Part shown: positions 3,715 through 26,375 of the stretch, piece after piece
How positions within the stretch are numbered: position 1 is the stretch's first letter
How the letters are laid out: every line of letters starts with the position of its first letter
NCBI GenBank assembly: GCA_947034895.1
Contig: OX344763.1
Coordinates: 48,297,025 to 48,361,024 of the forward strand
Source: Rhytidiadelphus loreus
Lineage: Eukaryota > Streptophyta > Bryopsida > Hypnales > Hylocomiaceae
Reading direction: 5' to 3'
DNA length: 64,000 bases
Made by a program: the position numbers and the translations under genes
Notes under the pieces: generated by a model
Seen by the model: only the letters and a program-made list of their open reading frames with translations
The model's database searches: none
What the model was told of the DNA's origin: nothing

Positions 3715-3723
3715 CAGGGTTGT
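3715..3723. repeat. Left terminal inverted repeat of element L
   Basis: CAGGGTTGT matches the reverse complement of 26,367-26,375 exactly. The next bases diverge, but both ends become rich in GACGTC and CGTCGCG within the first 110 bases. Confidence 0.7.
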
Positions 3724-3824
3724 CTTGTCTGACACATTTTTGGGTTTAGGCGTCGTGTATGACGTCTGACGTCGCGTGTTGCGTGTCACGAAGTGTCGAG
3801 TTTACTTGACATCACGTCGCGGAG

Positions 3825-3844
3825 GGGGTAAAAAATTTTACCCC
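3825..3844. repeat. Subterminal stem-loop, left end
   Basis: Nine-base arms GGGGTAAAA and TTTTACCCC flank a two-base spacer. The site lies 110 bases inside the left terminus. The corresponding R sequence near 46,830 has decayed from a perfect palindrome. Confidence 0.6.
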
Positions 3845-3903
3845 ATGGTAAATAGATTTTGCCTACGTGGCAGGGCTTCAGAACTGACGTGGACAGCCAG
3901 CGT

Positions 3904-4262
3904 GGGCGACTGCGGGTGTGGGCGCGTGCAGGTCTGCCTTGGGCGACCTCGGGTGGAAAAATTGAGGCGACTACGGGTGAAGGGGCGACTGCGGGTCTGG
4001 GGCGCTAGGGCGACTTCGGGTGAAGGGGCGACCGCGGGTGGAAAAAATAGAGGTGACTGCGGGTTTAGGCTTGAAGGCGATTGCGGGTGAGTGGGCGACT
4101 GCGGGTCAGGGACTTTAGGGCGACTTCGGGTGAAGGGGCGACCGCGGCTTCGGGTACTGAGGGCGACCGCGGGTCTGACAGGTAGGGGCGACTGCGGGTT
4201 ACAGGACGACTGCGGATCGGAGCAGCAGACAGCGACCGCGTGTTCTAGGGCGACCGCAGGTT
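3904..4262. repeat. Left terminal GGGCGACYGCGGGTC array
   Basis: About fifteen near-copies of the core read on the plus strand, that is inward from the left end. Variation falls mostly at CpG or CHG positions (CCGC, CTGC, CTTC, CAGC). Subterminal motif arrays bind transposase in Ac/Ds-type hAT elements; the same role here is inference. Confidence 0.8.
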
Positions 4263-4782
4263 CAGTTTAGGATTTCAGTTTGGCATATTCAGTCTTTGAA
4301 GTAACACGTCACATAGGTGTTTTATAAGCGCAGAATTAGGTGCTACGTTATATTGGGGTTTACAATTTACAAGTGCAAATAATAGAGCCCATGAAATGTA
4401 AATTGGACAAACTTCTCTAATCCCAAAAATTCACCCAGTATAAGGCCACAATAATAATGTCAACAACGATTATATTAATTAGTCATCGATATTGCTTTGA
4501 GGCGGACTTCAAATGTAGCCATACTTGCATTGCACTTTTATAACCACGTTGCAGTCATCACCTAACTGCCTACCAATTAGAACTCAACATATATTTTAAA
4601 ACCGGTAATCTGTCCCTCACTCTAATATGCTCATATGCTTGATGAAGCATTACAAAATCCTTACACATCAGGATGAAGGCTCAAAGCTTGAACTACAAAG
4701 ATTTGTTACCTAACATATAAGCTAAAACCTTATAACTATAATTATAACTATAACTATAATTATTGTCTACTTCTCTAGTACT
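4263..4782. other. 3' flank of transposase gene A
   Basis: AT-rich sequence runs between the terminal array and the stop codon of A, ending in short TATAACTATAAT-like repeats (4,730-4,765). No gene is seen. The region is conserved in R at 45,899-46,420. Confidence 0.6.
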
Positions 4783-7700
4783 CTAGTCACCAGGCGTGAA
4801 TGTGGAATCGCTCGGCACCTCATCAGCATTAGGGTCTGTATCTTCGTAAGACTCTTCGTTGCTCCTATTGTCGCCCGAGCTTTCGATTTCATCATCTTCC
4901 CTTGTTACTACTTCGATTTGTACCTCACGCTCTACCTCTGAGTTCAGATTTCGAACTTCTGTATCTACACCACTGAACCCTTCAGTTTGCACAAGCCGTT
5001 TCGTGAGCCTCAACGCATCCGTAGTTCCATCCATGTTGGATGCAGGGTGTCGCCCTCCTCTACTTGATTGTCCAACATTCTGGGTGGAACATCCCACTCC
5101 AATGGTACACTGTTGGACAATTTGAGTGGGTCGTTTAGGATTTCGAGGTCCCCTCTCGTCAACCCTCCTAATACGCCTTTTCTGGCCTCTATTGTTGCGC
5201 CCCTGGATTCCTAATGATGATTCGCCAGGGCTAGACACGGATGAAGGTTGAGTGGGTTGTGGAGCTGAGCCGTGAACCTCTTCATCAATCGTCCGTAGAG
5301 CACCTCCACGCACCGGTGGCCTTGTTGGAAGGGTTGGGATAGACCTCCTCACTGTTGCCACATTTGTAGTCGTCTCTAGATTCAACGGCACATTCCGACT
5401 TCGATTCATAACATATGCCAATGGCACATCATCATCATCATCTGTAGTAACAGTTGTTCCGAGGATAGATGCGTTCAATACAACGGGATTTGGTATTCCC
5501 TCGTGTACAACTTCATTGACTTCGATGGCCTCTTCTTCATGTTCGCTTCTCATTGGAACTTGTACACTGCTTCTTAAATTGCGGGCCATATTTGGAGACG
5601 AACTAGTTGATATTGGAGATCTAGCTTCTTCCTCTACGGGTGCCATGGGAATAGGTACGCCTTCGTCGTTGTTGTCGGGGGTGCTTTCCCTCCTCAGTGA
5701 TGCATGTGCCGGCGAAATTGCATCCATATTGTGCACGACGTTCTGCGGTGGACTGCGTACAGGTGAATTTCCCGGAGAAACATACCCATCGTCACTAAAA
5801 TCAAATGTATTCCCGTATATTGGTCGTGGAGGACTATGTGGCGGCCTAACCATTGCATTCCAAGGATTGTTGCGCAACCGATCCTCTTCATCCCTGCGGT
5901 TCTCGCGTTCTCTCATAAAATCAGGAACAACGTCGTCTTCTTCCCCTGAAGACAAAGGCCCATCACGCTCGTCCTCATCGTCTCCATCTGCAAGCATCTG
6001 GTCGTAAAAAATGGCTGGGTTGTGTCCACGTTTTTGACGTTCAAGTTTGTTGTTCGCGTAGATATACACCAATGTCTCTGCCTTTGTCGTGGCCAAGCAG
6101 TTTCGCACTTTATTGTGCACAAAGGAATACATGCTCCAATTCCTTTCACACGAAGATGCAGAGCACGTCAAACCGAGAATTCGCTTTGCAATTTTTGGAA
6201 GAGCATTGCCCCCCACACGATTCCACCATTGATGAGGCAATAATTGACATTCAATGATATTGGGAGCCTCATGTAAAGGATTGAATGCACCTGTCTTCTC
6301 TTCAAATTGAGTTAGCTCCTGCATTACTTCCACCACTGACACGTTCAATGGTACGCTCAGTTTTCGTATGACTCGATTCAAAGCTCCCTTCGCGTAGCCA
6401 TTGTTATGAATAGCCTCCACGTCACTCAAGTATGGATTTAGTAGTGCCCCCGCATAGTGTAGGTCAGTAATCATCAACTTCCAGCGAGCATCAAATTGTT
6501 TCTCATATTGTGTTGCCACCACTGGATCAAGGAAAAATGGAGCATTCTTGAGAGAATAAATGTGCTCCTTCAAGGCTGTCATCATTACTAAAGCTTTCGG
6601 CATTGCCAGGACTTTTCCATCAAAATGACGAAGACAAAGCAGCACGGGCTCTACCATATGGAGGAAATTGTCATACTGAACCCAGAACTCTTCTGAACGG
6701 ATATCTTGCCTTGCAAGTTTGGCCTTGCCCATAATGAAATGTCCATTTTTGCAGTTTTGCAAACTCAACTCGAACGTCATGTATATCCAGTGTCACGTTG
6801 TGCACTGCTTGCTTGCAGTCTACCAAACGATCAATCATCAAGAAATTTGCGGCAAAACGTGTTTTGCTTGGAAGTCTCAACACTTTGTTTGGTGAAAATC
6901 TCCGAAACAACGCCAAAGTATGTTGGTATTTCTTGATGAACTTCACAATTGATGAAGCCTTTTTTACCAACTCCTTTACTCTCTGATCCTTTCCCAAGTC
7001 TTCTAAGAGTAAGTCCAAAATGTGTGCCGCACAACCCTGCCTATAAATCTGAGGGTACCTTTCTTCCAACCTTGCCATCGCCCCCGTCATGACTGCAGCA
7101 TTGTCCGTACACAATTGCACAATGTTGGTAGGCCCAACTTCCTCAATGTATTGTGCCATCATCTCAATCGTGTAAGATATATCCTTCTTCTCCCCAGTAC
7201 TATCCACTGATCCCAAAAAGACATCCCCGGCGGGACACACTAACATCATATTTAGTAATGGCCGCGAATTAGTATCGGACCAACCATCTGAACAAATTGT
7301 CGCTCCATATTGACTTATTGAAACCCTCGTCCGCTCCGAGACCATGGCTTCAACCGATGCCTTCTTAACATCTATCATTTTTGTGTGAATCGCATTATAC
7401 GGTGGCGGTTGGTACACGAATCCAACTGTTGCAGTTTGTTTAACAGCATTCACGAAGGCCGGGTGGCGCACAACATTAAATGAAATGTTCGCCTCGTAAA
7501 AGAAAGAAGCCCACAACCTATCCAACTCTTGTCTGCGGCCCGTCTGTAATGATTCATCCATGCTTCTTTGTTGAGAAACAGATGGCATGTTCCTCCTTCT
7601 CTCAAGCGTTGTTCCAGTAGAATCTACTGAATCAGGCGTAGGATTTGGTCTTGCATTTGATTCAAAGGGATTGAGAGACCCTTCTTCTTCGACATCCAAC

Positions 7701-8053
7701 GCAGGTGCGACCATAGACTCTGCAACATTAACTGGTGCATCATGTCTAGCCGGTGCATCATACATCTCTTCGTAACTCATGGACCTTGGAACTTGCCCCT
7801 CGCCAGTCCGAAACTTTTCTCGTACAATTCTAGGGATCTCCTTACAACGCTCCGATGTAGTCGAGCCGCCATAGCCAAAGTGAATCAATACTCTCTTTCG
7901 TACAAATGCTTTGCTCCACCCACAAAACACGCATTTTCGAGCATGGGGGGAATTATCAATTGGGGTACACGGTACTAGCCAAGGGTCCCAATCCTTTGTG
8001 GACCTCCGCGTATCATTCATGGTCCCCCCCCTCCCAACACCTTGTCCAGCCAT
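4783..8053 (-). pseudogene. hAT-family transposase A (DUF659-like), frameshifted
   Basis: The ATG at 8,053 opens MAGQGVGRGG; the same frame runs to about 6,790 and then continues in another frame to 4,783. Near residue 41 is a BED-like finger (C41-x2-C44-x13-H58-x11-C70). A DUF659-like core follows with acidic sites in TICSDGWSD and LCTDNAAVM, then CAAHILDLLLEDL. The C-terminal dimerisation region contains SSCERNWSMYSFVHNKVRN. A long acidic, serine-rich tail ends at a TAG after TFTPGD. Compared with copy R, five bases (GAGAC) are missing near 6,790, which breaks the frame. The protein would cut and join element ends in the nucleus. Its promoter side faces the array at 8,364. R carries a differently damaged copy, so neither is intact here. 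Confidence 0.85.
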
Positions 8054-8363
8054 GTAGTAGATCAACACTGGGTCTTCAAAGAAAATGACTACAATAATCA
8101 CACTAATACTATGGAAGATGTAATGACAAAGCAACCCGCTTAGAGTGGTCTTGTAAACCCTTCTAAACACGGTTGTTGCCCTCCGAAGAAGTTAAACGTC
8201 CGCATGAAGCCTCTTTCGAAGGTCCAAGACAAGAGTTTTATCAACGGAGCCAAGGTGATAAAACAAGGGGTACCCCTAGAACTTTATACAAGAAAACTCC
8301 TTGGACCCGCGATCGCCCCATGAGAGAATGCGGGTCCAAAAACCTGAAATCAGTTAGGTGATG

Positions 8364-8548
8364 GGCGACTGCAGGTCCAAGATTGGGCGACAGCGGGTCC
8401 AGGAGTGGGCGACTGCGGGTCCAGAAGTGGGCGCCATGGGTCCAGGAGTGGGCGACTGCGGGTCCAAAAGTGGGCGCCACGGGTCCAGTAATGGGCGACT
8501 GTGGGTCTAGATACAGGCGACTGCGGGTCCAGGAACGGGCGATTGCCA
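8364..8548. promoter_or_regulatory. Motif array upstream of transposase A
   Basis: The array is a near-tandem run of 21-22 base units, GGGCGACTGCGGGTCCAGGA followed by GT, alternating with a shorter GGGCGCCAYGGGTCC form. It reads on the plus strand, away from the minus-strand gene A. The spacing of about two helical turns is visible only here. Regulatory function is inferred from position. Confidence 0.7.
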
Positions 8549-9024: not shown

Positions 9025-10632
9025 TCATTCAACATCCATTTTGGCCTTTTCTTTGCGGTCATGAGCCTCACGTTCCATCTCATACAAGACTTTCCTACCT
9101 TCCAACTGCAAATTCCTAAGGTATCGGTCATCCTTCCCCAACTTCTTTTCCAACCAAAATTGCTTGTATGATTTTTGGAACTTCAAAAGCGCCTTCAGTG
9201 CATCCCGATATTCTTCCAATTTTGGATCCAATGACAAAGAAACCCCAAGCTTCTTTTTCAAGTCAACTACTTCCGTAAGAGACAATGCTTGTTTAGTAGC
9301 CACGTCTTTCCAACCACACATTTCTGCAACACGGTCAAGGGGGGCTTTGTCCTTTAATGCTTTCAAGGAATTTAATCTTGATCGTGCTTCTTCCACCCCT
9401 CGCTTCTCCAAGTCTATCTGATCTTCCTCCAGCTTGCATGCTTCCATAATTTTGGCAAGCCGTTCTTTTGCAAACTCATTGCTAGAAGAACTAGATCCTC
9501 CAGCATGCCGAGAAGAGAATCTAAGGTAAAATGCTTCCAAGTCTAAAATCTTTGTTATTTGCGTTGACAAAAGAACTTGCCGACTTTCAAGTTCAGCACG
9601 TAAGCTATTCACAATATCTCCACTCAAAGTTTGCGTTTCTTGATTGCGAAGCTTCTCACATTCTAGATGCTTTTCATCCAACTCATTTAGAAGCTTCTTG
9701 AGTTGAGCTTTGTAAACAACTTTGGTGTCCAACATTACTGTGTCAGGGACAGTTCCATCTTCAACAAATTCCTCACTTCGGTACATGTCATCAACACAAT
9801 CCAATTGGAACAAAGAAGGCTTCACATCTTCTTCTGTTTCCATCTCTGTCCAAAAAACATCATCTTCTGCTTCTTGCATGCATGCAAGCACATACTGCAA
9901 AACTTCGTCTTCTTCAGTGCGAGGGACTGTAATCGGATTCACCATAGCAAGAGGCAAAATATCAAGATTTTGTGGTTGCCTAGCTGGTTCACCCTCTTCT
10001 TCCATTCTCGGGGGAGGTAAATTTTGTGAAGTAGAAGCCACCATCGCCATGTTTTGGGGCTGCATTGGAGGGTCTTCACCAAGGTTGTCTTCCTCTCCCG
10101 AAGATGAATTAGATGACGTCCAATGAAACTGCTCATCGGGCACTCCCTCCTTCAAGTTTTTCTTCTAGCCTAGCCCTTCACGTGGATTGGCAGATAGAGC
10201 CGCCCTTGGGATGTCTTTTGTCGGTGGAAGGCGAGCATGCTTCACTCCCTTGATTGAACTCCAATCCACGCTTCGAAACAAAATGAGTTCCGCATACACC
10301 ATTGCACATATGAAATACGGGACTTCGCTCCTGGGCACTGAATATGTGCCATACAAGTATCGATAAATTTCGATACAACGTTGTACAAATGCATCATTAC
10401 GACATGGATGCAAATTGGCCGTATTGTTGTGCCGATTCGTGTAGTGCCGATGATAGGGGAATAACTTGTCGATGTGGCACCATCCCACGAAGGACTTACA
10501 AGTCTTGGCGGTCCAGTGGCCCATAATTCGATCCCAACCTCGGTAGGCCACACACGCTGGGTCCAAAAGGATGCGTCGTTGCCTAGGGTGCATGGCTCCT
10601 TTTGCCTTGGTCTTCTTCTTGTGGTTCGCCAT
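9025..10632 (-). pseudogene. Coiled-coil protein B of the CHIxKLFP family, one in-frame TAG
   Basis: The frame opens at the ATG at 10,632 (MANHKKKTKAKG) and stays open to 9,025, about 535 codons, except for a TAG at 10,165-10,167. The basic N-terminus is followed by a conserved domain of about 130 residues with FVGWCHIDKLFPYHRH, a CIEIYRYLYGTYS-like segment and MVYAELILFRSVDWSSIK. Then comes an acidic, serine-rich linker (FHWTSSNSSSGEED) and a long C-terminal coiled coil (about residues 280-535). D and E share this plan. I do not know the family and assign no biochemical function. Upstream lie a duplicated CCCTAAACCGC motif, a shared promoter-like block and a motif array. In R only the last 105 codons or so survive (40,647-40,962). 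The TAG sits between domain and linker, so a truncated domain-only product is possible. Confidence 0.65.
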
Positions 10633-10667
10633 TGGAGATGCTCTTGAGATTTGGGGCAAGGAATCTA

Positions 10668-10735
10668 AACTTAACCCTAAACCGCAAAGTATTATTTAGC
10701 TAAACTTAACCCTAAACCGCAAAGTATTATCTAGC
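10668..10735. promoter_or_regulatory. Duplicated telo-box-like leader motif of B
   Basis: Two direct copies of TTAACCCTAAACCGCAAAGT lie just upstream of the B start. The same core, CCCTAAACCGCAWAGTA, occurs just upstream of D in the opposite gene orientation. AAACCCTAA-type telo boxes are known near plant transcription starts; that role here is inference. Confidence 0.5.
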
Positions 10736-10807
10736 GATTAGTGAGTGATGGAGTAAAATCAAGAACATGAGCCACATGTAAGTGAAACTCAAAACCCAAG
10801 CTCCCGG

Positions 10808-10846
10808 GCACGCAATCAGCCACTGTAAAGTAGGTGAAAGGCAGAA
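10808..10846 (-). promoter_or_regulatory. Shared promoter-like block of B
   Basis: In gene direction this reads TGCCTTTCACCTAC, then about seven bases, then GTGGCTGATTGCGTGC. Near-identical blocks precede G, C and D at similar distance from the array. Such conservation in otherwise unlike leaders suggests a core promoter or transcription start. Confidence 0.55.
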
Positions 10847-10898
10847 CGCAGCAAGAAGGGAAAGTGGCGAAGTCGGGTGGGGAGACAGCTAATTAACC

Positions 10899-11205
10899 CG
10901 CAATCGCCCTGGGGCGAGTTCGGGAAGGGGCGCGTGCAGGTCTGAGAGCGACCGCGGGTAGGGTGACTGCGGGTCTAAGGGGCCGACTGCAAAGGCGACT
11001 GCGGGTCTGGGGCTACTGGGGATGGGCGACCGCGGGTCGAAGGCTATAGAAGTACTGGGGTCCTGCGCGACTGCGGGTAGGGCGACTGCGGGTCTGGGGC
11101 TACTGGGGATGGGCGACCGCGTTTGGGGCACCACAGAGTAATTTCTGGACCCCTACAATGGGGCGACCGCGGGTAGGGCGACCGCGGGTGGGCGACTGCG
11201 GGTAC
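10899..11205. promoter_or_regulatory. Motif array upstream of B
   Basis: Around ten GCGACYGCGGGT cores read on the plus strand, away from the minus-strand gene B. Part of the array is itself duplicated: a segment beginning GACTGCGGGTCTGGGGCTAC recurs near 10,998 and 11,091. Confidence 0.7.
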
Positions 11206-12468: not shown

Positions 12469-13790
12469 TCACAAACGATTTGTCCGTGGCACAAGGTTGT
12501 CCAAGTTTGCGCGAGCTTGGTTTAACCTATTATTGGTCTGCTCAAAGATATCCGTGGTGTTGATTTGCACGCTCAGAGATTGTGTAAATGCGCGTTCCGT
12601 CCCGTGCTCATCATCCTAAGGTGGAATTGTCATTAGTACATATGATATTCACAGAATGGGGTACAAACAATACTAACCTAGCAAGTATATTAACTCGTGT
12701 TGTGGTATTGCACTAACCTTAATGAGTTGTAACAACAAGCATCCATTCTGAGACTCAAAAAGTTTCTCGACATCCTCAAATTCTTCTAATAAAGCTCTGC
12801 ATCTCCCGGACCCCCATATCAATGAATATTAAAACATAACAACTACATATGGGTATTTTTAACATATAATCTTATAATACAAGTTCTATACTAGAACAAC
12901 CGAACCTGAGGTTTGTGCAATCTTTTCCTTGCCGAACCCACACATATTCTTCCATCATGGCCCACCCCTCCCTAATGGCCTCATCAAATTTGGCTCCCCA
13001 AACAATATCGCGTGTGTTTTGTATCAAACACATCACTCGTCCTGCAGCAAATAAGCACTAATAGTGAGATGAAATGTCCACCACCAACTATCCAACTAGA
13101 AATGTTCATTAATACATGTTCATTTCATTATTCAAGGATTCAAATCACCTATACAAAATGAAGGGCAATATTTTACTCACCCATTTTGCTGGCTTGGAAA
13201 TGGCCTTTGGACTCATTGCATTGGCCATAATGAGCAAAGCAATACAATTTGTAGCCTTTCCAAAAGTCCTTAATCCTATTTCAAAGATCACAAATCAATT
13301 CCAATAGAATAATCATTGTCATGGTGATTCTCCCACCTATTAAAAAGACATTGTCTACAATACAAGTGGATGACAATAAGGAAGTCAAAGGCAAACTAAA
13401 CAAATTTTTACCGGAAATATTCATGGTCGAGAATAATTATGACTTCCTCTGAGCACTTGCTAAATAGGACACCTGCCATTAAGCCTGTAAGGAGCCAAAT
13501 AACTAATCATTAGCAATGCAAGAAGATTAAATTTGAATAGGCTACATAACAATTGAGGCCCCCCTACGTTACTATAACACCCAAAAATGAAAGAGAATCA
13601 ATGAAGAACCAAATGAATCATTTTCATTTGAATTGCTAATTGTTTTAAATGTGAATTTAGTGTACCCTTTTTCGGTGACTTCACACCCATTTGTGTGTGC
13701 ATCCTTATTATTCAACAACTTTGCCACAATGAATGCAATTGCCGTTTCAAGGCCCTCTACATTAAATGGCTTTGATATTCTCACTATCCT
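12469..13790 (-). CDS. Spliced gene G, unknown protein
   Basis: Minus-strand exons join in frame at GT..AG borders: 13,412-13,484, 13,181-13,275, 12,906-13,041, 12,718-12,802 and 12,469-12,615 (stop TGA at 12,469-12,471). Phases agree at every junction, for example SKMG joined to RVMCLIQ. A further 5' exon at about 13,660-13,790 (SKPFNVEGLETAIAFIV) is likely, but its junction does not fit cleanly and the start codon is not placed. The product includes DFWKGYKLYCFAHYGQC, ARALLEEF-like helical text and a polar C-terminus (QINTTDIFEQTNNRLNQARA). I recognise no family. It is the only multi-intron gene in the element and is divergent from the kinase. The shared promoter-like block and an array lie upstream, as for the other cargo genes. 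R lacks it entirely. Confidence 0.55.
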
Positions 13791-13898
13791 AAACTAATGG
13801 AAAAGATTTTGGGTTCATTGAAGTATACAAGAAGTGTCTGCTGTATTGTTGGCTGTTTGTGGGAAACCAAAAAAACCACGAGACCTCCACAACATTGG

Positions 13899-13930
13899 GC
13901 CCACATTCAGCCACTACAAGGTAGGTGAAC
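13899..13930 (-). promoter_or_regulatory. Shared promoter-like block of G
   Basis: In gene direction GTTCACCTACCTTGTAGTGG is followed by CTGAATGTGGGC. It matches the blocks upstream of B, C and D, including the spacing between the two halves. Confidence 0.5.
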
Positions 13931-13987
13931 TACAAGGCGCAGTTATGAAAATTATGGACCACAGGCTGGAATAGCCCATGAAATACT

Positions 13988-14699
13988 CGCGGTCGCCAGG
14001 GGCGCATGCGCTAATCCTAACACGGATACTAGGACGACAGCGCATGGGGCGACTGCGCATGGGGCGACTGCGCGTGGGGCGACCGCGGGTCCGGTCCAAG
14101 GATCCCTCGCGTCTTTCAAGGGCGACCTCGGGTGAGGGCGACCTCGGATCAGGGCGACCTTGGGTCAGGGCAACCTCGGGTCCTTGAGGGGGAAACACAT
14201 TTCAAAATCCCCCCTCCATCAGGGCGACTGCGCATAGGGGGCGACTGCAGGTCAAGGAGAAAATGCAAACTCCTTGACCCGCAGTCGCCCCCTACGCGCA
14301 GTTGCCCATATGGAAGGGGAGGGAGACACCAAATACTTTTTCGCCCTCTATCAGGGCGACTGTGCGTAGAGGCGACTGCGGGTCAAGGTGGGAGACACCA
14401 AAAATTTTGAAAATGCAATCTCCCCCCTTCCATCAAGGCGACTGCGTGTAGGGGGTGACTGCGGGTCAAGGTGGGAGCAACCTAACTATTTCAAAATGCA
14501 ATCTCCCCCCTTCAATCAGGGCGACTGCGCGTAGGGGGCGAGTGCGGGTCAAGGTGGGAGACACCAGAAATTTCGAAAATGCAATCTCCCCCCTTCCATC
14601 AGGGCGACTACGCGTAGGGGGCGACTGCGGGTCCCCAGATCACTTCCAAAATCAGACCTGGGGTTCTAGGGCGACTGCGCTTTGGGCGACTGCGGGTAT
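13988..14699. promoter_or_regulatory. Long motif array upstream of G
   Basis: GGGCGACTGCGCRTAGGGGG and GCGACTGCGGGTCAAGG units alternate. They are separated by repeats of a spacer containing CAATCTCCCCCCTTCCATCA, so this part is a higher-order tandem repeat of about 110 bases. Most copies read on the plus strand, away from gene G. One pair at 14,277-14,305 is inverted. Confidence 0.7.
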
Positions 14700-14700
14700 G

Positions 14701-15250: not shown

Positions 15251-15361
15251 GACATGATTCTGTTTTAGGTCTAAAACACTACATCTCGTGTAGGATGTGT
15301 AAGTATTTTATGTAGGTTTAAGGATTTGATTCTAGATAAAAGTTGTATTATTGTTTTCCAA

Positions 15362-15395: not shown

Positions 15396-15554
15396 CTTCA
15401 CATTGTGAGAATAATTCTTCCATTGCCTTGCTATGTCTTTGATATGAACTGACGCCTAACATTTATTACCAATTTTGGATGTGAGATAAGGAAAAATCAA
15501 TTAGAATATGTTGCAGATGCTAATTAGTGTTGGGTCAGATTGGTTGTTGGTTTA

Positions 15555-15872
15555 GGGCGACCTCGGGTCAGGGGCGACCGCGGGTCATCGACGAAGCAAA
15601 AAACACATTTGAATCAGGGCGACTACGCGTAGGGGGCGACTACGGGTTGAAGAGACTTCTTTGTGGGCGACCGCGTGTGCAAGTTTTGGGATGGTTTAGT
15701 TGGTACCCGCGGTCGCCCATGATCCGCACTCGCCTTTGATGCGCAGTCGCCCATTTCAGCGCTCCAAAAACGCGCAGTCGTCCATTCCCGCTGTCTTTAG
15801 ACCCGCAGTCGCCCCCTCCCAACCCGCAGTCACCCAAATGCACGCGTCCTGAGGCGACTTCGGGTACTTAAG
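15555..15872. promoter_or_regulatory. Motif array upstream of kinase C, with orientation switch
   Basis: From 15,555 to about 15,680 cores read GGGCGACC on the plus strand, continuing the direction of the G array. From about 15,705 they switch to ACCCGCGGTCGCCC, so the kinase-proximal copies point away from the kinase. A last inverted copy, GGCGACTTCGGGTAC, lies next to AAGCGTT, and the same junction (GGCGACCTCGGGTAC, CAGCGTT) precedes D at 19,780. Confidence 0.7.
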
Positions 15873-15915
15873 CGTTAGCCCCACTTTCGATTCTCACCTT
15901 ACTTTAGCCTTACGC

Positions 15916-15953
15916 ACTGTCTTTCACCTACCTTCAGGTGGCTGGATGCGTGC
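15916..15953 (+). promoter_or_regulatory. Shared promoter-like block of kinase C
   Basis: ACTGTCTTTCACCTACCTTC is followed by AGGTGGCTGGATGCGTGC. It is the same two-part block as at B, D and G and lies about 90 bases before the start codon. Confidence 0.55.
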
Positions 15954-16044
15954 CCGTGGGCTGGGGTTTCAATTGGGGGTGGAATTGTTACCCTTTCAAT
16001 CTACGAATTTTGAACTACGGTTTTGAATTGTTCCTAAGTACAAC

Positions 16045-17637
16045 ATGGCTTTTCCACATGAAGGCAACACTACAAGGAGAAAGTCTTTATGGGATCTGGA
16101 CCCTGATGATCCAATTTTTTTCGAGGTTCCGATAGCTGTAAATGAAAACGAAGAAGGAGGGAGTCAAGAGCGACGGAAGGGCAAGAAGCAGAGGTCAGCA
16201 CATGACAAGGACTCCAACTATCCTCCCCCGAGTTATACCCGATATGCATATGAAGCGTGTCTCCAGTGGTACGCAGGGAAAAGTGTACAATTCTTGGAGG
16301 CAAGCTATTTGAGGTGTCCTACAACTGGTAGTGTGGCCTTGCCAAACGATTTACAAGCACGGATTTTAACCAAGCTAAAGGGATCCGATGATTTCGTAGA
16401 CATTGACTTGACATATTCTTCGAGACTATTTGAATGGCTTGATAACACATTGAAAGCGGTGATGTTCAATACCAAGAAATTGATGGAGGAACATCGACCG
16501 TTTCTTCCGATAGTAGAGGAATCAGAAGACATCAAGGCATTCCGCCAAAAAATGGAGTGGTGGTCCAGCGTAGTGAAGAAATTGGCAAGAGGCTCGGCAA
16601 GGGGTTTTAAGTGGAAAAATGCAGCGGTGCAGGCAGCATTTGCACGAGATGGTGGATTGTGTATCACGTGGATCCCCGATACGGCGAAAGTGGTGCCCCT
16701 TAGTGCTTTTGAACGTGAAGGGGGGTATGCAAAAGTGCGTAAGGTACGCATTGAAGGAATGGATACAATTCCAAGCTACATCGCTTTTGCTGGGAAAGTA
16801 TCCAAGGCAATAAACCCGCGCGAGGGGAGAGCGCAACGATCCATGGAGGCCCTTGCATGCCCCTTGAACCACCCTGGCATCATTAAGTTTTTTGCCATTC
16901 ATTCTCGCACGAATGAAGCGTACACTTTGTGGTGGAATGGGGGCCATTTGAATGAGTTGAGGCATTTAGATCGTTCTGTATCACCAATCATTGACTGGCA
17001 TGAAATGCAAAAAGCCACAAGACTTCCTGAAGAGAAACAAAAAGAACTTGGTCTCTTCCGAAGGCACAAGGCAAAGTTGGCATGGGCTTTAGTATATGTG
17101 ACAAATCTCATGCACAAGTGCCGCGTGCTACACAATGACTTGTCTCCCATGAACATCATGTTGCATTTTCCGGATTATTCAAACGACATAATCAACATTG
17201 AAATTTGTGATTTTGGAATATCAAGTCGTTTTGACGAAAACGTGCCTTCACATTTTCGAAAGCCATCTGAGGCCGAGAGGGATCAATACCGAGAAGGTCG
17301 TTGGTGGGTTGCCCCGGAGTTGTTTTATGCATATGGACCTCCAAATTCCGATACAAGCATACCGATCATGCAACAACGGTATAAATATACGCAACAGTCA
17401 GACTCGTATTCTATTGGGAAGTTGACCGAATGGATGAGAATTGGTGATATGGTCGATTGGGACAAGGATTTGTTCAAGACTTGCGAGGGATCAATGTACT
17501 TCGGAATGAAGTTGTGTGAACTCGTGAACCCTGACCCAAAGAAGAGACCAACATGTATAGAGATTATAAATTCCCTTATGTCTCCACCATGGTCCATGAT
17601 GCCCCCTGAATTGGTGTTCCGAGACTCACCTTTGTAA
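16045..17637 (+). CDS. Protein kinase C, intact cargo gene
   Basis: A single 530-codon frame starts at the ATG in AACATGGCTTTTCC and ends TAA with a following TAG. Residues 1-210 are unlike a kinase. The kinase domain spans about 215-525: glycine loop near 224-234 (REGGYAKVRKV), candidate lysine K251 in AGKVSK, catalytic loop HNDLSPMN (D365, N370), CDFG (D389) and a WVAPE motif (E425). These are the residues needed for phosphotransfer, so it is predicted active. Several distantly similar kinase genes are, to my knowledge, found in plant repeat families; the substrate is unknown. It is divergent from G and preceded by array and promoter-like block. It has no premature stop, unlike most neighbours. 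R keeps only its C-terminal third (36,348-36,655, 40,575-40,647). Confidence 0.85.
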   Translation: MAFPHEGNTTRRKSLWDLDPDDPIFFEVPIAVNENEEGGSQERRKGKKQRSAHDKDSNYPPPSYTRYAYEACLQWYAGKSVQFLEASYLRCPTTGSVALPNDLQARILTKLKGSDDFVDIDLTYSSRLFEWLDNTLKAVMFNTKKLMEEHRPFLPIVEESEDIKAFRQKMEWWSSVVKKLARGSARGFKWKNAAVQAAFARDGGLCITWIPDTAKVVPLSAFEREGGYAKVRKVRIEGMDTIPSYIAFAGKVSKAINPREGRAQRSMEALACPLNHPGIIKFFAIHSRTNEAYTLWWNGGHLNELRHLDRSVSPIIDWHEMQKATRLPEEKQKELGLFRRHKAKLAWALVYVTNLMHKCRVLHNDLSPMNIMLHFPDYSNDIINIEICDFGISSRFDENVPSHFRKPSEAERDQYREGRWWVAPELFYAYGPPNSDTSIPIMQQRYKYTQQSDSYSIGKLTEWMRIGDMVDWDKDLFKTCEGSMYFGMKLCELVNPDPKKRPTCIEIINSLMSPPWSMMPPELVFRDSPL

Positions 17638-19400
17638 TAGGATAGTCTAGAGCAAGACTTTAGTGCTACAAGCAATGAGCTTGGTGGCCAATTATGTGTT
17701 GCTTACTTTGTAATATTTTCCTATATTATATGAAGCAATTTTATGCCACGCACATTGTCTTTAGAAAAACAATTACTCAATGGGCTATTTGTCAAATTGT
17801 ATATATTGAATATGGCCTTTTACACATTGTTATGCAAAGTGTAACAACTTTTGAATTCAAATGTTCTTGGTCCTTTTTGATTCCGTAGTATATAATGGAC
17901 GCAAGGAAAATAAGAAAATGAAAATAAATTAGTTGGTAATTGATGTTGAAGACTTGTATTATTTCTTGAATAAAATGTGCTAGTATGCACTTGAAAGGAG
18001 TTTTACTTTCATGGTCATTGAATTCAAATAGTTGTTTTTTCAATCCCTAAAAAAATGTAAGCCATACATCATTTACATTCTCTTATTATTTTTTCTATTT
18101 CCAAAAATAAAAGCAAGTTGGTTTTTTTTTCCTATTTATTCTAATTCAAATATAGGAAACATACATTTTAGACTTTTTTAGACTTTTCCTTTTTATTCGT
18201 ACTTTACCTATTTCAAAATAGATGAGAGATGTTTTTATTTATTTATTTAACCTTTTTCGCTTTCTTCCTATTTATTTTATTTGGAAAAAGGAAGTTCATT
18301 GACTTCTTGCGACCCCCTTTTTTTTTTGAGACAATGAAACAAGAGTGGATATTGCAAAAAAGATATGTAGCCATAATCTTTGTCATTTATTAAACACGCA
18401 ATTCGAGAAAACTTGGATGAATTCAATAATAAATGTAAATCTGGTTTTACCATATATATTATTCCTAGTAGCATAATGTTTTCCTACCATATTCTTTTTT
18501 TTGGTATATGTCATCCAAATTGATAAAAACACACATTCTTTCATAGATGGTTGGAGTATGATATAAGTCCAACAATGATTTTCATTTATAGATTTGTGTC
18601 CGTACAAGAAATTTAGTTATTAGGCATGTAATTTACCAAAATTAGTGTGTGTAACATAGTATGTAATTTGAGTCTACATCCAAAAGTACATAATGAACAT
18701 CTCATGTCAAAACAATTACAAAGACATTATTGTTACAATTGCAATGGTTAATACTTAATAATCATAACATTGGTTATTAACAATTGAATTAGTTATTAAC
18801 AATAAAATTAGTCATTAACAATGAAATTAGTCATTTACAATAAAATTAAGAATTAACAATGAAATTAATTAATAACAAAAAAATTGGTTAACAACAACTT
18901 CTTCTAAAACAATTGCAAAGATTTAACTTTTGTTCAGATAATCAATAATGAATCCATTTGTACCACAACCCACCTCAACCCTAATGGCTCCCCAAATATA
19001 GTATAAAGTATAAACTAGTATTCCATAAATTTTGCAACACAAATGGGATTGAGCTCACAATCCTTTTTTTTCCCCTTGCGATTTGGTGCTCAAAAGCAAC
19101 AAAAAATTTAGGCTAGCTATAAGCTATAGGAATTTTTTAGGAAAATTTTGGATGAAATTGCTAGAAAAACTTCAACTTCTAGAAAAGTCTTCGATGAAAT
19201 CGCCACAATGTAAATGAAAATAGAATTTTAGATACTTAGTATCACATTTTCTATCCAGTACGTGGATGAATGTTGAAGCTTGGAGCCCCTCCGTAACATT
19301 TAGTATCGCCACTTTCCCAGCGCAAGGAAAAATGGAAAAAAATATTACAATCTATAAACATGTACTAAGAAGGAAAAGAAAAGTCCATGCATTAATAGAT
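17638..19400. other. AT-rich spacer between kinase and D
   Basis: No gene is recognised. The stretch is well conserved in R (34,593-36,347), including a region whose 64-residue chance translation (17,694-17,888) is identical in both copies. Long T and A runs are present. Confidence 0.5.
18773..18895. repeat. Short AT tandem repeat
   Basis: Units like TTAACAATGAAATTAGTCA repeat about six to seven times with a period of 18-20. The inverted counterpart in R is at about 35,098-35,222. Confidence 0.75.
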
Positions 19401-19401: not shown

Positions 19402-19818
19402 GACCCGCGGTCGCCTGGGACCCGAGGTCGCCCAAGACCCGCTGTCGCCCAGGACTCGCTGTCGCCCAGGACCCGCGGTCGCCTTCGCAAAGTGGACCCG
19501 TGGTCGTCCTGGACCCGCGGTCGCCTAGGACCCGCAGTTGCCCTGGACCCGAAGTCGCCCTGGACCCGCGGTTGCCCACTCGCCCGGGCTCCTTCGACCC
19601 GCGGTCGCGTTGGAGCACCTGTCCAGACCCGTAGTCGCCCCACTCTAGGACCCGCGGTCGCCCTGGAGCACTTGCGCTGACCCGCAGTCGCCCCACTTCC
19701 GGACCCGCGGTCGCCCTGGAGCACTGGGCTGACCCGCACTTGCCCCACTTCAGGACCCGCACGCGCCCCAGGGGCGACCTCGGGTACATCAGCGTTCTCC
19801 TCCACCCGCAGTCGCCAT
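19402..19818. promoter_or_regulatory. Motif array upstream of D
   Basis: About twenty ACCCGCGGTCGCC cores at roughly 17-25 base spacing read toward gene D, so GGGCGAC points away from it. The array ends with the inverted GGCGACCTCGGGTAC copy near 19,777. Confidence 0.8.
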
Positions 19819-20100: not shown

Positions 20101-21588
20101 ATGGAGGGTGAGGACTCTCAACCGCCACATGGTATGTCAAGATACCGACTTCGGCTCAACAAAAAGGCGGTTCGTGACAAGGATCGTAAAAGGAGCGGCA
20201 AACCTCGCAAGAAGCGTGTACCCATCTTGTTGCATCCAAAGATGAAGGCCTTTTTGGGATGGGAAGTAGAACCAGAGCCTTGGACATATGAAACTGTAAA
20301 CAAATATGTGGATTGGTGCCACATCAACAAGTTGTTCCCGTTTTGGCGACACCCTTTGCACGTGAAGTCTAATAAGGCAAATTTGGCTTACTGCAAGAGT
20401 GTTGTCTTCCAGCGAAGGTGTTTGGAGGTATGGCAGCAACTCTATTTGGAGTCCCAGCCTTATCGAAATGACAACTTCTCTTTCTATCTTGTGCAAATGG
20501 TGTACGTTGAAGTTCAATTGAAGAAAAAGGTAGATTGGACAACCTTGAAGGAGCTTCCTATCGGTGACCGCCCGGACACACCGATAGTGCTGGATGAAGA
20601 AGGACTTCTTCAAGCAAATCAGAAGCTTTTAGAGGCAAAGCCTGGCAAGTTGGTAGTTGGTGATGACCAAGTTCAATGGTCTTCAACTTCTAGCTCAGAT
20701 GAGCACACTCACGAATACAATGGATATTCTTTTGAGAGTGACGACGAAGACATTGGCAAAGAAAAACAAGAGGCGGCTGAAGACGTTCAAGTTGACAAGA
20801 AGGGCAAGAGGAAGCTTGAGGAGCCGCAATCATTGTCCAAGATTCAAAAGCAAAGCGAAGATGTTCATGTACCGATCAATGTGGACCGTTCTGGTGCAAA
20901 CAGTGGGTCTAGCGGAAGTAGTGACAATGATTCGGAAGACAATTTGGAGATGTTGGGCACTAAGATCGAAAGTGCACGAGCATCTTTGACTTCAACAGTA
21001 GCGGATCTTATGAATTTGAAAGAGAAGGTACAACATCTTCTAGTGAATCCAACTGTTGTGAATGGGTTGAAGGAGTTAGAGGCGACTGAAAATGCCGTTG
21101 CTGAAAATGAGAAGATTTACTCTAAGTTAAACAAAAGTAGAGTAAATTATTTCAAGAAGATCGAAGACGGGCGAGCACACATTTCCGATGATTTAGCGGT
21201 GCTTCAAAATAAACTTGATCTTTTGCAACGTGATAAATGGTCCCATCAAAGCGAAAGGAGAAGCTTGAATCTTCAAATACGTGAGCTAGAGATGGAATAT
21301 TATGATGATGCCTTAAAAGAAGCCAAAAAAGAGGGCATCTTGGCTTTAGCTCCGGATTATGGTAGCAATACAAAAGAAAGAGCAACGCTTTTTTATTTGG
21401 TGAAGCTACTGGAGAAAAAACAAGAGTTGTTGCACGAGGGCATATTGGACTTGGAGCGCCACATCCGGTTTTTTAAGGAATGGTGCAAGTGGGCCTATGA
21501 AGGCATAGGTGCCACCCGTGCGGAACTTCAAAGAATGAGACCGGAGCCCAAAGAAAGTGACTTTGTGAATAGTGAAAAAAATGCTTAG
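20101..21588 (+). CDS. Coiled-coil protein D of the CHIxKLFP family, intact
   Basis: The ATG at 20,101 (MEGEDSQPPHG) opens an uninterrupted 495-codon frame. A basic stretch (about 15-40, KDRKRSGKPRKKR) could be a nuclear signal. The conserved domain follows (about 45-165): WEVEPEPW, YVDWCHINKLFPFWRH, ANLAYCKSVVFQRRCLEVWQ, MVYVEVQLKKKVDWTTLKE. A serine/acid-rich linker (WSSTSSSDEHTHE) leads to a coiled coil from about 290 to 480. B and E are its paralogs inside the element and F is one outside. I recognise no catalytic residues; a DNA-binding or assembly role is speculation. D converges on E, and their 3' flanks are inverted relatives of each other. The R copy is broken, so D is the reference for the family. 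Confidence 0.8.
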   Translation: MEGEDSQPPHGMSRYRLRLNKKAVRDKDRKRSGKPRKKRVPILLHPKMKAFLGWEVEPEPWTYETVNKYVDWCHINKLFPFWRHPLHVKSNKANLAYCKSVVFQRRCLEVWQQLYLESQPYRNDNFSFYLVQMVYVEVQLKKKVDWTTLKELPIGDRPDTPIVLDEEGLLQANQKLLEAKPGKLVVGDDQVQWSSTSSSDEHTHEYNGYSFESDDEDIGKEKQEAAEDVQVDKKGKRKLEEPQSLSKIQKQSEDVHVPINVDRSGANSGSSGSSDNDSEDNLEMLGTKIESARASLTSTVADLMNLKEKVQHLLVNPTVVNGLKELEATENAVAENEKIYSKLNKSRVNYFKKIEDGRAHISDDLAVLQNKLDLLQRDKWSHQSERRSLNLQIRELEMEYYDDALKEAKKEGILALAPDYGSNTKERATLFYLVKLLEKKQELLHEGILDLERHIRFFKEWCKWAYEGIGATRAELQRMRPEPKESDFVNSEKNA

Positions 21589-23259: not shown

Positions 23260-25785
23260 TTAGTTCAAGTCCATTGGATTGTTATGAGAACCACTCGGTG
23301 CACCTTGTTCGTAATCATTGGACTCTCCAACAACGAGTTTCTTCTTAGCACGAGTCCTTGAAGCAGGTCCATCTGCTTGTAAAATAGATTCCAAGACATT
23401 GGAGTTCTTGAAAGCTTCAAGTGTCCTTTTAGTTTGCGGAGAGTGTAACTCCAATAGATAATCGAGTGCTTGGCTTTGATAATAAGGCCCGTATGTTGAG
23501 TCGAGGTAAGCCATACTATTCAAGTCTTCTGGAGTGGCATTTTCATCACGATTAGCCCCTTGTTCACCTTCAAAATTCCAACGGTGTCCTTCCGGATGAG
23601 CACCCTACTTGAAGGTTTGGGATGTCTTATCAAAATATCCACCAAGGCATTGAAAAAAAAAAAACCTCTTCCCTGCATTGAGAGCTCCTTTTCCCATAAG
23701 GTTGAATGCCACTCTTAGAATTTCACGCGGGTCTGTTTCCCAATTCAATTGTGAGGCAGCAGCTCCCATTTCTTGATTATGTAGGCCTTCTCGCCAACTC
23801 CAAAGCAAGTCTCGTTCCCAAAATCGTGTCTCTACCGTCATGTCTCTATTGTGTTTCCAAGAAGGTGGCATGTAAGTCATCAAGTTGAACATGGTATACA
23901 AGCAATCATGGAATGGTGCTGCACAAATCACACATCGTCGTCTAATCAGACATTGAGTGATGAGACACTAAGGATGGTACACATGTGTACATGATCCAAG
24001 TGCCCATCTTCCTTCTGGCCCAAATTGTTCTAGACATATAGGGCATTTGGTATGATCCAAGACGAAATGAGCTGGCTTTGGCCACAATAGACTTTGGTCT
24101 TTTTCGTTGAAGTGACTAGACATCTGATTTCCATGGTCCCAACCATTTTGTGTCCAGTCTATGACATTTTTTTCCGCCACGTCAAGCATGGACATGTTAT
24201 CCGGAAACATGTCCTCCATCAATGCCCATGATGTCAATCCATTCTCTCGTTTAGGGGCATTTGCTACAAAGTTCTTTGAAACTTTGTCTAGCTCTTTCGC
24301 AACTTGTTGAGATCGATCCACGGAGAGAATGCATGCGACCTTCCAATGATAGTATGTCGCTGCCAACACTGCCAACTTCTCTCGAAGCATTCTATTTTCC
24401 TCAGCCAAATCAAGTTCCTTTGATGATTGTAGATGTGGAATGACAGGAAACGAAAGTGAATCCTGAGTCCCTTGCAAACCATCAACGTGCGGATTGATAG
24501 TATCTTTTGAGACGAACGGAAGCAGTGCCATTGGAAGAATTGAAGAACGCTTTGTACGCTTCGTACGCTTGGCAGAAGGAGAAAGGTGAATGACATCGCT
24601 GGTGAGGTCCCCAACAACCTTGTCCAAGTGATGTGGATCCTGCTCAACAAAGGTTTCGTCCATGTCCGACAATGTGAAAGTCTGACGCTCTTTTTCTCGA
24701 AGGTCTTGTAATTCTTTGGATTGTTGAGAAATGAGAGCATTTTTTTGTTCACATGTAGACCGCCATTTCTTCACATCACCTTTTAAGGTTGCAATTTGTG
24801 CATCCTTGGTCATCAAGAGGTCGAGAGCCTTCGCCAACGTCATCGCATTGTGAACAATATTAGATTCAGACTATGGAATGGGAATGTGACTTGTGGCACA
24901 TACGGGTGAGTCGTCACTTAAAGCAATGTCGAAGACGTTGCTGGCGTCTTGTCGTGGCAAGATTGGAGTCGCAATTGTGGTTGAGGCTGATGCCAATCTA
25001 ATTTTCGTGGTGGACCGTCGCACCTTCGCAGGATGTTTCATCTTCTTTCCCCGCGATGATGAAGCGGCTTGAACATTTGGATCTGGAACTGGAACTGGAA
25101 CTTTGACGGGGGTGATAATCTGCTCCTTCACTCGTACAAGCTTAGGAATCCGTGTGCCATCTGAATCATTATCCTCTTTTGATTCTTCCATGTTCACCTC
25201 TTGAGTTTCTTTGTTTTGTAGATCACTTCGAAAAGGCCCAAGTCCACCCTCCGGAAATTTGAGAACCCCTCTTGGAATTATTCCAACTTCTGGACGCTCC
25301 ACGTAGGTACTTTCTTTAATCGTGGTCCAGTCAACTTGTTTGTTCAAGGCGACCTCAGCATAGGCACCTCTAGCAATGAACAAAGGGGCCTCATTCCTAT
25401 CTACAAAAGGGTTTTTGTAGAGGACTTGCCACAATTCTAAACACCTTCGTATGAAAGCTGGATTTTCACAATACTTCAAATTTGCCTTGTTATTGTGTCG
25501 GTTGTGATGATGGCGCCATGCTGGAAAGAACTTCCCGATGTGATACCATTCAATGTAGTCTTCGCACACCTGCATACTCCAAGGCTCTGGCTCCTCGTTC
25601 CACTCTTTGAAAGCTAGGTGGTTATCATTGTTCAACACATGCCATCGCTTCTTGTGAATGTTACCCCTCCTTTTTCTAGTCTTGTCTTTGGCAGCCTTTC
25701 TAATTGCACCAGGAGTGCGTATTGTGGAAAATCCCGGAAGGGACCCATCACTGCTACCTCCAGTTGCCATGAGATTTGCGGACAT
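23260..25785 (-). pseudogene. RING-H2 protein E of the CHIxKLFP family, three in-frame TAGs
   Basis: One frame of about 840 codons runs from 25,785 (MSANLMATGG) to TAA at 23,260. R lacks the first ATG but keeps the second (M6, at 25,770), which may be the true start. The only interruptions are TAGs at 24,871, 23,968 and 23,605. The conserved domain (WEEPEPW-like start, YIEWYHIGKFFPAWRH, CLELWQVLYKNP, VDWTTIKES) lies at about 50-175. A coiled coil and lysine-rich linker follow. Near residue 580 is a RING-H2 finger, CPICLEQF to HVYHP and on to RRRCVIC: C-x2-C-x14-C-x-H-x2-H-x2-C-x10-C-x2-C. The second TAG falls inside the finger at the H-x2-C gap. Such fingers usually recruit ubiquitin-conjugating enzymes. 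R shares the last two TAGs but reads CAG at the first. Confidence 0.7.
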
Positions 25786-25924: not shown

Positions 25925-25932
25925 CTATATAG
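25925..25932 (-). promoter_or_regulatory. TATA-like box of E
   Basis: CTATATAG lies about 140 bases before the E start. It is kept in R as CTATATAT at 28,182-28,189. Confidence 0.45.
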
Positions 25933-26228
25933 GGCGAGTGACTTCGGTCTAGGGGGGTGAGTACGGATAGGGCAACTGCGTATCCAGCGACTTCGGGTCT
26001 GGGTAGGGCGACAGCGGGTCTCGAGAGGGCGACAGCGGGTCCAAATTGGGCGACTTCGGGTCTACCACCGGGTCTAGGTACCTTTTGCGCACCCGCGGTC
26101 ACCCACACAAGAACACTTCCTGAACCCGCGGTTTCCCTGCCAAACCCGCAGTCGCCCACCCGCAGTCGCCCTCGTCCACCCGTAGTCGCCCCTACCCGCA
26201 CTCTCCTACCCGTACGCGCCCTCCAGTT
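25932..26228. promoter_or_regulatory. Array upstream of E and right terminal array of L
   Basis: To about 26,085 the cores read GGGCGACAGCGGGTC on the plus strand, away from gene E. From about 26,095 they read ACCCGCAGTCGCCC, that is inward from the right element end. The switch point separates a promoter array from a terminal array. Confidence 0.75.
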
Positions 26229-26230
26229 TG

Positions 26231-26260
26231 CCAAGTGGATGCCATGTGGCATCCACTTGG
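26231..26260. repeat. Subterminal hairpin, right end of L
   Basis: Fourteen-base perfect arms (CCAAGTGGATGCCA) flank a TG spacer. The site is conserved in R around 27,692-27,721. Confidence 0.75.
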
Positions 26261-26327
26261 AGGGGGGTAATTTCCTGTAAAGTCAAAGGTAAATTTGACT
26301 TTTCGTGACGTCGCGCGGGCTCTACTA

Positions 26328-26343
26328 GACGTCGCGCGACGTC
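26328..26343. repeat. Perfect 16-base palindrome near right terminus
   Basis: GACGTCGCGCGACGTC lies about 32 bases inside the element end. In R it is GACGTCGCACGACGTC. It may be a transposase or host-factor site. Confidence 0.65.
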
Positions 26344-26366
26344 TGTCTATCGCGCTGTCGCAGCGA

Positions 26367-26375
26367 ACAACCCTG
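26367..26375. repeat. Right terminal inverted repeat of L
   Basis: ACAACCCTG is the reverse complement of the left end CAGGGTTGT. The matching end of R begins at 27,575 as TAGGATTGT. Confidence 0.7.

What the first reader, a model, noticed from the sequence alone, without database searches (positions are those of the whole stretch)
3715..26375. A 22.7 kb hAT-type element carrying six genes
Seen: matching CAGGGTTGT ends, a hAT transposase and five other genes (kinase, three proteins sharing a domain, one spliced gene), all repeated in a second copy with the same inner boundary. Known: hAT elements normally carry one gene in a few kb, with YARGG ends and 8-base duplications. Inference: this is a giant cargo-bearing hAT lineage, comparable in concept to other giant transposons, that I do not recognise as described.
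Basis: partly seen in the sequence, partly recalled or inferred. Interest (0 to 1): 0.93.

Follow-up and report, generated by a model that had tools for sequence, protein, structure and literature searches.

The report
Giant six-gene hAT jumping element
A 22.5-kilobase jumping DNA element has moved as one unit in this genome and carries six genes, among them a protein kinase, all behind the same short DNA motif, whereas typical elements of its class are a few kilobases with one gene.

Summary
The reading holds; one observation needs correcting. Copy 1 (3715-26375) is one unit. Sixteen both-ended family members were checked in the window and its own 407-Mb genome: 9 have perfect 8-bp target duplications (including full-length copies of 22.4 and 22.5 kb), one 7/8, two neighbours have swapped ones, and 4, copy 1 among them, have none. 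Three insertion sites occur empty with one 8-bp unit. Thirty-eight kinase-B pairs lie 2.2-2.5 kb apart, none otherwise arranged.

Copy 2 is not a full repeat: it lacks the left end, most of A, all of S and most of K, and sits in another hAT transposase gene.

The genes: transposase; A, B, C, sharing a ~145-aa domain unknown to Pfam (C adds a sub-threshold RING match); a kinase; seven-exon S. A 13-bp motif clusters upstream of all six and near both ends, in copy 1 never inside a gene. Relatives of K, B and A occur in public data.

I call it a new giant, multi-gene hAT variant. No copy read has an unbroken transposase frame; functions of the extra genes are inferred; within-genome selection tests were inconclusive.

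The parts
3715..26375 (+). Copy 1 of the giant hAT element, 22,661 bp
   Evidence: ends; two full-length copies elsewhere about 96% identical end to end with 8/8 target duplications:
3715..3723 (+). Left terminal repeat CAGGGTTGT; the longer left-end 19-mer occurs 561 times exactly in the genome
26367..26375 (-). Right terminal repeat CAGGGTTGT; the longer right-end 23-mer occurs 209 times exactly in the genome
4783..8053 (-). T: hAT transposase (DUF659 and hAT dimerisation region, long C-terminal tail); split over two frames in copy 1, and in one piece in none of the copies read
9025..10632 (-). A: 535-aa protein, shared domain plus coiled-coil-like region; one stop in copy 1, open in e1, e2, e3, e6, e7
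12469..13895 (-). S: seven-exon gene, 214 aa, no Pfam family; exons 13895-13885, 13788-13685, 13484-13412, 13275-13181, 13041-12906, 12796-12718, 12615-12469
   Evidence: open in 6 of 6 copies; splice sites printed; Pfam:
16045..17637 (+). K: 530-aa protein kinase, open here; catalytic Lys, Glu, HND, Asn, Asp (roles assigned from recall) invariant in the 20 sequences aligned
20101..21588 (+). B: 495-aa protein, shared domain plus long helical, coiled-coil-like region, open here
23263..25770 (-). C: shared domain plus RING-like zinc finger (below Pfam's curated cut-off); stops in copy 1
3904..4261 (+). 13-bp motif GGCGACYDCGGGT, left subterminal cluster
8305..8528 (.). Motif cluster upstream of T
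10896..11203 (.). Motif cluster upstream of A
14062..14697 (.). Motif cluster upstream of S
15555..15865 (.). Motif cluster upstream of K
19403..19817 (.). Motif cluster upstream of B
26006..26191 (.). Motif cluster upstream of C, also right subterminal
15925..15980 (+). Shared leader CACCTAC..GTGGCTGRATGCGTGC before K; the same near 19852 (B, +), 13927 (S, -), 10836 (A, -); only its core near 25850 (C, -)
   Evidence: the strict pattern was found before A, S and K but not before B in e1, e2 and e7
27575..46882 (-). Copy 2, inverted, damaged: no left end, no S, most of A and K missing, ~3.9-kb insertion at 36656-40574
26885..48783 (+). Second, distantly related hAT transposase gene (26-47% identical), split by copy 2; uninterrupted in locus L019:4586-4987

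Best explanation
This is a giant cut-and-paste hAT transposon of about 22.5 kb that has transposed as one unit and spread to many sites. SHOWN: common ends, 8-bp target duplications in most copies checked, empty sites, fixed order of the two genes surveyed genome-wide and of all six in the full copies read, copies on five large contigs, shorter derivatives with the same ends. SHOWN: six genes (T, A, S, K, B, C) and a 13-bp motif clustered upstream of every gene and near both ends. INFERRED: the transposase cuts at CAGGGTTGT, helped by subterminal motif sites as in other plant hAT elements (recalled); the same motif acts as a shared control site, bound by the transposase or by one of the three shared-domain proteins A, B and C, so that the genes are switched on together and expression is coupled to mobilisation. 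INFERRED: the kinase and the RING-bearing protein C modify the transposase or host factors to raise transposition or escape silencing. INFERRED: gene-free and S-only derivatives moved by using enzymes made by full copies. The confidence given is for the mobile six-gene unit; the inferred roles I put at about 0.4.
For: Full copies e1 (22,533 bp, TTGAGGAG 8/8) and e2 (22,410 bp, GGCACCTC 8/8), about 96% identical to copy 1 throughout. Shorter copies 7 of 7 with 8/8. Empty sites with one 8-bp unit for L044, L047, L048. Linkage: 38 K-B pairs, 0 other arrangements; exact right ends 7.98-9.00 kb from 17 of 41 K and 4.82-5.02 kb from 23 of 47 B, mirror controls 0 of 41 and 0 of 47. Open frames: 63 of 81 scored K loci and 64 of 86 scored B loci have no stop (only best-scoring loci are scored, so biased to intact ones). 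Relatives elsewhere: K 68, B 8, A 7 proteins; kinase catalytic residues invariant in 20 aligned. One relative of K (P0011) and one of B (P0005) are each listed on a single contig of 6460 bp, possibly the same one (contig names not shown, the listed sources differ). Motif: 46 copies in copy 1, 0 inside the genes that fill 53% of it, 3-11 within 1 kb upstream of each gene, mononucleotide-shuffle mean 0.005. Leader core 12-14 of 14 before A, S, K, B and C; 9 of 14 before T.
Against: Of nine both-ended 22-24-kb copies, four have no matching duplication (copy 1 3/8; others 5/8, 4/8, 3/8) and two have it only after swapping with each other. None of the copies read has the transposase in one open frame, and none has all six genes unbroken; introns in T were not excluded. 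Within-genome pN/pS of the genes (0.33-0.70) is not clearly below off-frame controls (0.38-1.07), so recent selection is not shown. No expression, binding or biochemical data. The shared-domain model is middling (pLDDT 67) and matched no known fold. The leader is the weakest sign: 7% of random 600-bp stretches of copy 1 (some holding true sites) reach 12 of 14, and the strict pattern was not found before B in e1, e2 and e7. A, C and T were not surveyed genome-wide.
Confidence: 0.88

Rival explanations
1. Passive capture: an ordinary hAT once swallowed a stretch of host DNA with five host genes and then multiplied; the extra genes are passengers with no role in the element's life. (This would leave the mobile unit itself as described.)
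For: Transposition by hAT needs in principle only the transposase (recalled). Within-genome pN/pS is not distinguishable from off-frame controls. Copies without A, K, B and C exist with the same ends and 8/8 duplications.
Against: Three of the genes are diverged paralogues with one domain, all six starts have the same motif clusters and five the same leader core, and relatives of K (25-69% identity), B (41-50%) and A (31-43%) occur in other sequence sets. A random host segment would hardly be built from one promoter type.
Confidence: 0.12
2. Chance cluster of several nested elements, each with its own ends.
For: Nesting is common here: copy 2 sits in another hAT gene; L047 sits in S and L048 in T of other copies.
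Against: Same content and order in full copies at other sites with 8/8 duplications; 38 K-B pairs and no other arrangement.
Confidence: 0.02
3. A hAT transposon fused to a virus-like or other selfish replicon (in the manner of Teratorn, a piggyBac-herpesvirus fusion; herpesvirus recalled), the extra genes being the replicon's.
For: Several genes with their own regulatory motif, an unusual kinase and a RING protein on one mobile unit.
Against: No polymerase, capsid, helicase or protease family was named among the proteins given to Pfam (10 of the 14 ORFs of 150 aa or more that one search listed; further proteins); viral contigs gave no relative of K or B.
Confidence: 0.03

Closest known systems
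Classical plant hAT elements (Ac/Ds, Tam3, Tag; recalled)
   Same: Transposase with hAT dimerisation region, short imperfect terminal repeats beginning CAGGG, 8-bp duplications, short motifs repeated near the ends, non-autonomous derivatives (the features here).
   Different: About five times longer and six genes instead of one; the repeated motif also stands before every gene.
ToxhAT of fungal wheat pathogens (PMC6737239; passages seen)
   Same: A 14-kb element with terminal repeats, a hAT transposase gene and other genes, eight in all.
   Different: The passages say that searches of the flanks revealed no target duplications. Here duplications and empty sites are shown and many copies exist; the domains named are different.
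En/Spm and Mutator, multi-protein plant DNA transposons (recalled)
   Same: Accessory element-encoded proteins and repeated subterminal protein-binding motifs that couple regulation and transposition.
   Different: Other superfamilies, fewer genes, no kinase.
Starship elements of fungi (search listings and abstract starts only)
   Same: Giant cargo-carrying transposons.
   Different: Classified by a tyrosine recombinase; here a hAT transposase, and the same gene set in the full copies read.
Teratorn (PMC10175614, abstract start seen)
   Same: A DNA transposon enlarged to a multi-gene unit.
   Different: A 180-kb fusion with a piggyBac-like transposon; no viral core gene was named here by Pfam.

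Membership tests
hAT superfamily | hAT transposase with dimerisation region | tested here: met
   PF05699 E 3.2e-5, 24.1 bits against a cut-off of 21.4; PF04937 DUF659 E 3.4e-36
hAT superfamily | 8-bp target site duplication | tested here: met
   16 both-ended copies: 9 at 8/8, 1 at 7/8, 2 swapped between neighbours, 4 without; copies lacking an end (e5, e6, copy 2) not counted (copy 1 by eye)
hAT superfamily | Short terminal inverted repeats beginning YARGG (consensus recalled) | tested here: met
   CAGGGTTGT at both ends, 9 bp, then diverging
hAT superfamily | Catalytic D, D, E residues | not tested
   DGW, TDNA and CERNWS motifs can be read in the translations but were not aligned to characterised hAT enzymes
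hAT superfamily | Precise insertion shown by empty sites | tested here: met
   L044, L047 and L048 sites occur empty with one 8-bp unit; 10 joined sites were compared, counting copy 2's host site, and 6 had no empty counterpart in hand
Starship | Tyrosine-recombinase captain gene as first gene (recalled) | tested here: inconclusive
   No such match among the proteins scanned against Pfam; 4 of 14 ORFs of 150 aa or more and all smaller ones were not scanned
ToxhAT | Its fungal cargo (ToxA and others) | not tested
   No comparison with ToxhAT sequence was made; only passages of its paper were seen
Eukaryotic protein kinase | Kinase domain with catalytic Lys, Glu, HxD..N, D(F/W)G | tested here: met
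   PF00069 E 2.5e-12; K251, E268, HND363-365, N370, D389, G391 invariant in the 20 sequences of alignment A2

The most novel reading that the evidence does not exclude
An old lineage of self-regulating giant hAT transposons that carries its own signalling and ubiquitin-type apparatus: a kinase, a family of new-domain proteins (one with a RING) and a motif-based regulon that runs all six genes and the element ends together, so that these genes are parts of the transposition machinery rather than cargo.
Probability: 0.4. Interest if true: 0.93.

Novelty: new variant of a known kind. Interest (0 to 1): 0.82.

Why it matters
hAT elements are a standard example of small one-gene transposons. A 22.5-kb hAT that multiplied with six genes shows that a cut-and-paste transposase can carry a large fixed gene set, and gives an abundant natural system for asking why a transposon keeps a kinase and a RING protein. 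A pair of copies with swapped duplications suggests that it also rearranges chromosomes. The shared ~145-aa domain has no Pfam or fold match yet.

Tried and rejected
Viral contigs for K and B relatives: none. Species genomes for K: two weak bacterial kinase hits only. Structure of B (pLDDT 50) and of the shared domain (pLDDT 67); the fold searches gave nothing above noise. pN/pS among copies: rejected as evidence for selection because off-frame controls gave like values. Explaining copy 1's missing duplication by a swap with another copy: the pattern search did not complete. Transposase search of the genome: unanswered. Papers: nine searches; two of them listed no paper and one search listed 15 of 47; nothing listed describes such an element by its title and abstract start. 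This covers only the held open-licence library. The 1358 and 2341 first-look candidates for K and B are not confirmed counts and were not used as copy numbers. The protein searches with B and A scored only the 7997 candidates sharing most words, so 8 and 7 are lower bounds. An assembly-duplicate reading was dropped because the flanks differ at each site read and many carry duplications.
Full report
WHAT IS THERE. The window lies in a 407-Mb genome of 489 contigs (G000:C3:48297025-48361024). Copy 1 runs from 3715 to 26375 with CAGGGTTGT at both ends. A second copy lies inverted at 27575-46882. It is not a full repeat: what copy 1 has at 9340-17259 is absent, so about four fifths of A, all of S and about three quarters of K are missing; a ~3.9-kb sequence is inserted at 36656-40574; its right end reads TAGGATTGT; its left terminus is gone. 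It was inserted in the transposase gene of another hAT family: its two flanks match adjoining parts of one transposase (residues 19-245 and 245-347 of T), and the uninterrupted site is found in L019 (93% over 402 columns).

ONE MOBILE UNIT. The right-end 23-mer occurs 209 times exactly and the left-end 19-mer 561 times; reversed controls gave 0. I fetched six of the eight right-end copies that laid out (those of L003, L004, L005, L006, L008, L010). Two are full length: e1 22,533 bp and e2 22,410 bp, about 96% identical to copy 1 throughout, with perfect 8-bp duplications TTGAGGAG and GGCACCTC. e3 (10.9 kb) and e4 (5.5 kb) are internally deleted, both 8/8. e5 and e6 have lost the left 3-3.6 kb. 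Six more pairs of ends 22.5-23.7 kb apart were tested at their flanks: one 7/8; two neighbours have duplications that fit only when swapped between them (8/8 and 7/8, compared by eye), as expected after an inversion between two inverted copies; three do not match (5/8, 4/8, 3/8). Five short elements were 8/8 in 5 of 5. In all, of 16 both-ended copies, copy 1 included: 9 at 8/8, 1 at 7/8, 2 swapped, 4 without. The misses all fall in the long class.

EMPTY SITES. Ten joined sites were compared with the sequence in hand. For L044, L047 and L048 the same target occurs without insertion and with a single 8-bp unit; that of L044 is a nearby duplicate of its target. Copy 2's host site was found uninterrupted. 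The other six (e1, e2, e3, e4, L045, L046) had no empty counterpart there; L045 had only a partial 77% match. L047 sits in gene S, and L048 in the transposase gene, of other copies of the element: the family inserts into itself.

GENE ORDER. The genome search scored the best 81 kinase and 86 B loci, all near full length; apart from the window's own they are 95-98% identical to it. Thirty-eight pairs, those with both members in the two capped lists, lie 2.19-2.53 kb apart in the same order; no other arrangement within 10 kb was seen. An exact right end lies 7.98-9.00 kb from 17 of 41 kinase loci and 4.82-5.02 kb from 23 of 47 B loci that fall where the list of ends is complete; mirror-side controls were 0 of 41 and 0 of 47. 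The end was demanded letter for letter, so the rest are not counter-examples. Of 11 kinase loci on the first 76.4 Mb of C1, 5 have an exact left end 10.7-12.2 kb upstream. On that stretch 20 of 40 exact right ends have a properly oriented exact left end within 24 kb: 10 at 5.3-6.6 kb, 4 at 10.9-13.6 kb, 6 at 22.5-23.7 kb; eight more pair only at 30-45 kb and 12 not at all within 60 kb; a left end in the wrong orientation within 25 kb was seen for 7 of 40. T, A, C and S were not surveyed genome-wide.

THE SIX GENES. T is a hAT transposase (DUF659, dimerisation region). A, B and C share a ~145-aa domain (pairwise E 3e-27 to 4e-40) that Pfam does not know. C adds a RING-like finger below the curated cut-off. 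K is a kinase with the catalytic residues invariant in the 20 sequences aligned, far from any solved kinase (best E 3.4e-6). S has seven exons and an open frame in 6 of 6 copies; the splice dinucleotides printed are kept in the five other copies (the donor of exon 2 was afterwards moved by 2 nt and not printed again). In copy 1, T, A and C are broken while K, B and S are open. In none of the copies read is T one open frame, and none has all six genes unbroken. Relatives in public protein data: K 68 (25-69% identity), B 8 (41-50%), A 7 (31-43%).

SHARED CONTROL SITES. GGCGACYDCGGGT occurs 46 times in copy 1, never inside the genes that fill 53% of it; 3 to 11 copies lie within 1 kb upstream of each of the six genes, and clusters lie near both ends (10 in the left and 4 in the right 500 bp). 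The clusters lie at like places in e1, e2 and e7. A leader (CACCTAC..GTGGCTGRATGCGTGC) precedes A, S, K and B of copy 1 in sense orientation; in e1, e2 and e7 the strict pattern was found before A, S and K but not before B. C has the core alone (13 of 14); T has no good match (9 of 14); 7% of random stretches of copy 1 reach 12 of 14, some of them holding true sites.

DERIVATIVES. e4 and L045 keep the ends and, of the genes, sequence of S only. L044, L046, L047 and L048 share about 240 bp of the left end with the element (88-90%) and, where it was listed, about 200 bp of the right end (L046, L048; 84%); their interiors resemble each other, and one 0.7-kb stretch is 67% like copy 1's 18081-18824. 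No protein of T, A, K, B or C matched them, nor did S; in L047, the one listed, the only ORF of 100 aa or more is repetitive.

HOW IT MOST LIKELY WORKS. Shown: precise hAT insertion of the whole unit and its derivatives. Inferred: the transposase acts on the ends with the help of subterminal motif sites; the same motif before each gene lets one element protein control all six; K and C modify the transposase or host factors. Rivals are passive capture of host genes (0.12, which would leave the mobile unit as described), a viral or other replicon fusion (0.03) and chance nesting (0.02).

AGAINST. Selection on the genes between copies is not shown: pN/pS 0.33-0.70 against 0.38-1.07 in wrong frames. 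Six of nine full-length copies examined lack a plain duplication at 7/8 or better. No copy read is fully intact. No expression data. Organism unknown.

NOVELTY. By ends, enzyme and duplication it is a hAT. By length, six-gene content and shared control motif it is a variant that none of nine literature searches turned up. ToxhAT (14 kb, eight genes) is the nearest described; its authors report that no duplications were found (passages of PMC6737239).

Noticed in passing
61243-61545 (-), ORF 60865-61545: A distant member of the shared A/B/C domain (E 1e-13 to A) outside both copies, without the 13-bp motif nearby; possibly from a second giant family.
   Followed up: partly
26885-27574 and 46883-48783: A second hAT family (26-47% identical transposase, hAT dimerisation region E 1.4e-7) with a long C-terminal tail, split by copy 2 and found uninterrupted in L019.
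   Followed up: partly
G000:C1:29326233-29348780 and 29373032-29395640: Two inverted full-length copies with swapped target duplications, the mark of a chromosomal inversion between them.
   Followed up: partly
L044, L046, L047, L048: Satellites of 5.4-6.4 kb without the element's genes but with its ends, 8/8 duplications in 4 of 4.
   Followed up: partly
36656-40574: About 3.9-kb sequence inserted in the kinase remnant of copy 2 with an ORF of 361 aa, retroelement-like by eye only.
   Followed up: no
58935-59742 and 56548-56786: Three nearby copies of a ~220-bp unit and an imperfect (72%) 240-bp inverted self-match outside the elements.
   Followed up: no
43813-44395 and 63695-63994: About 580-bp insertion in copy 2's transposase gene, part of which has a 79% relative at the window's end.
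   Followed up: no
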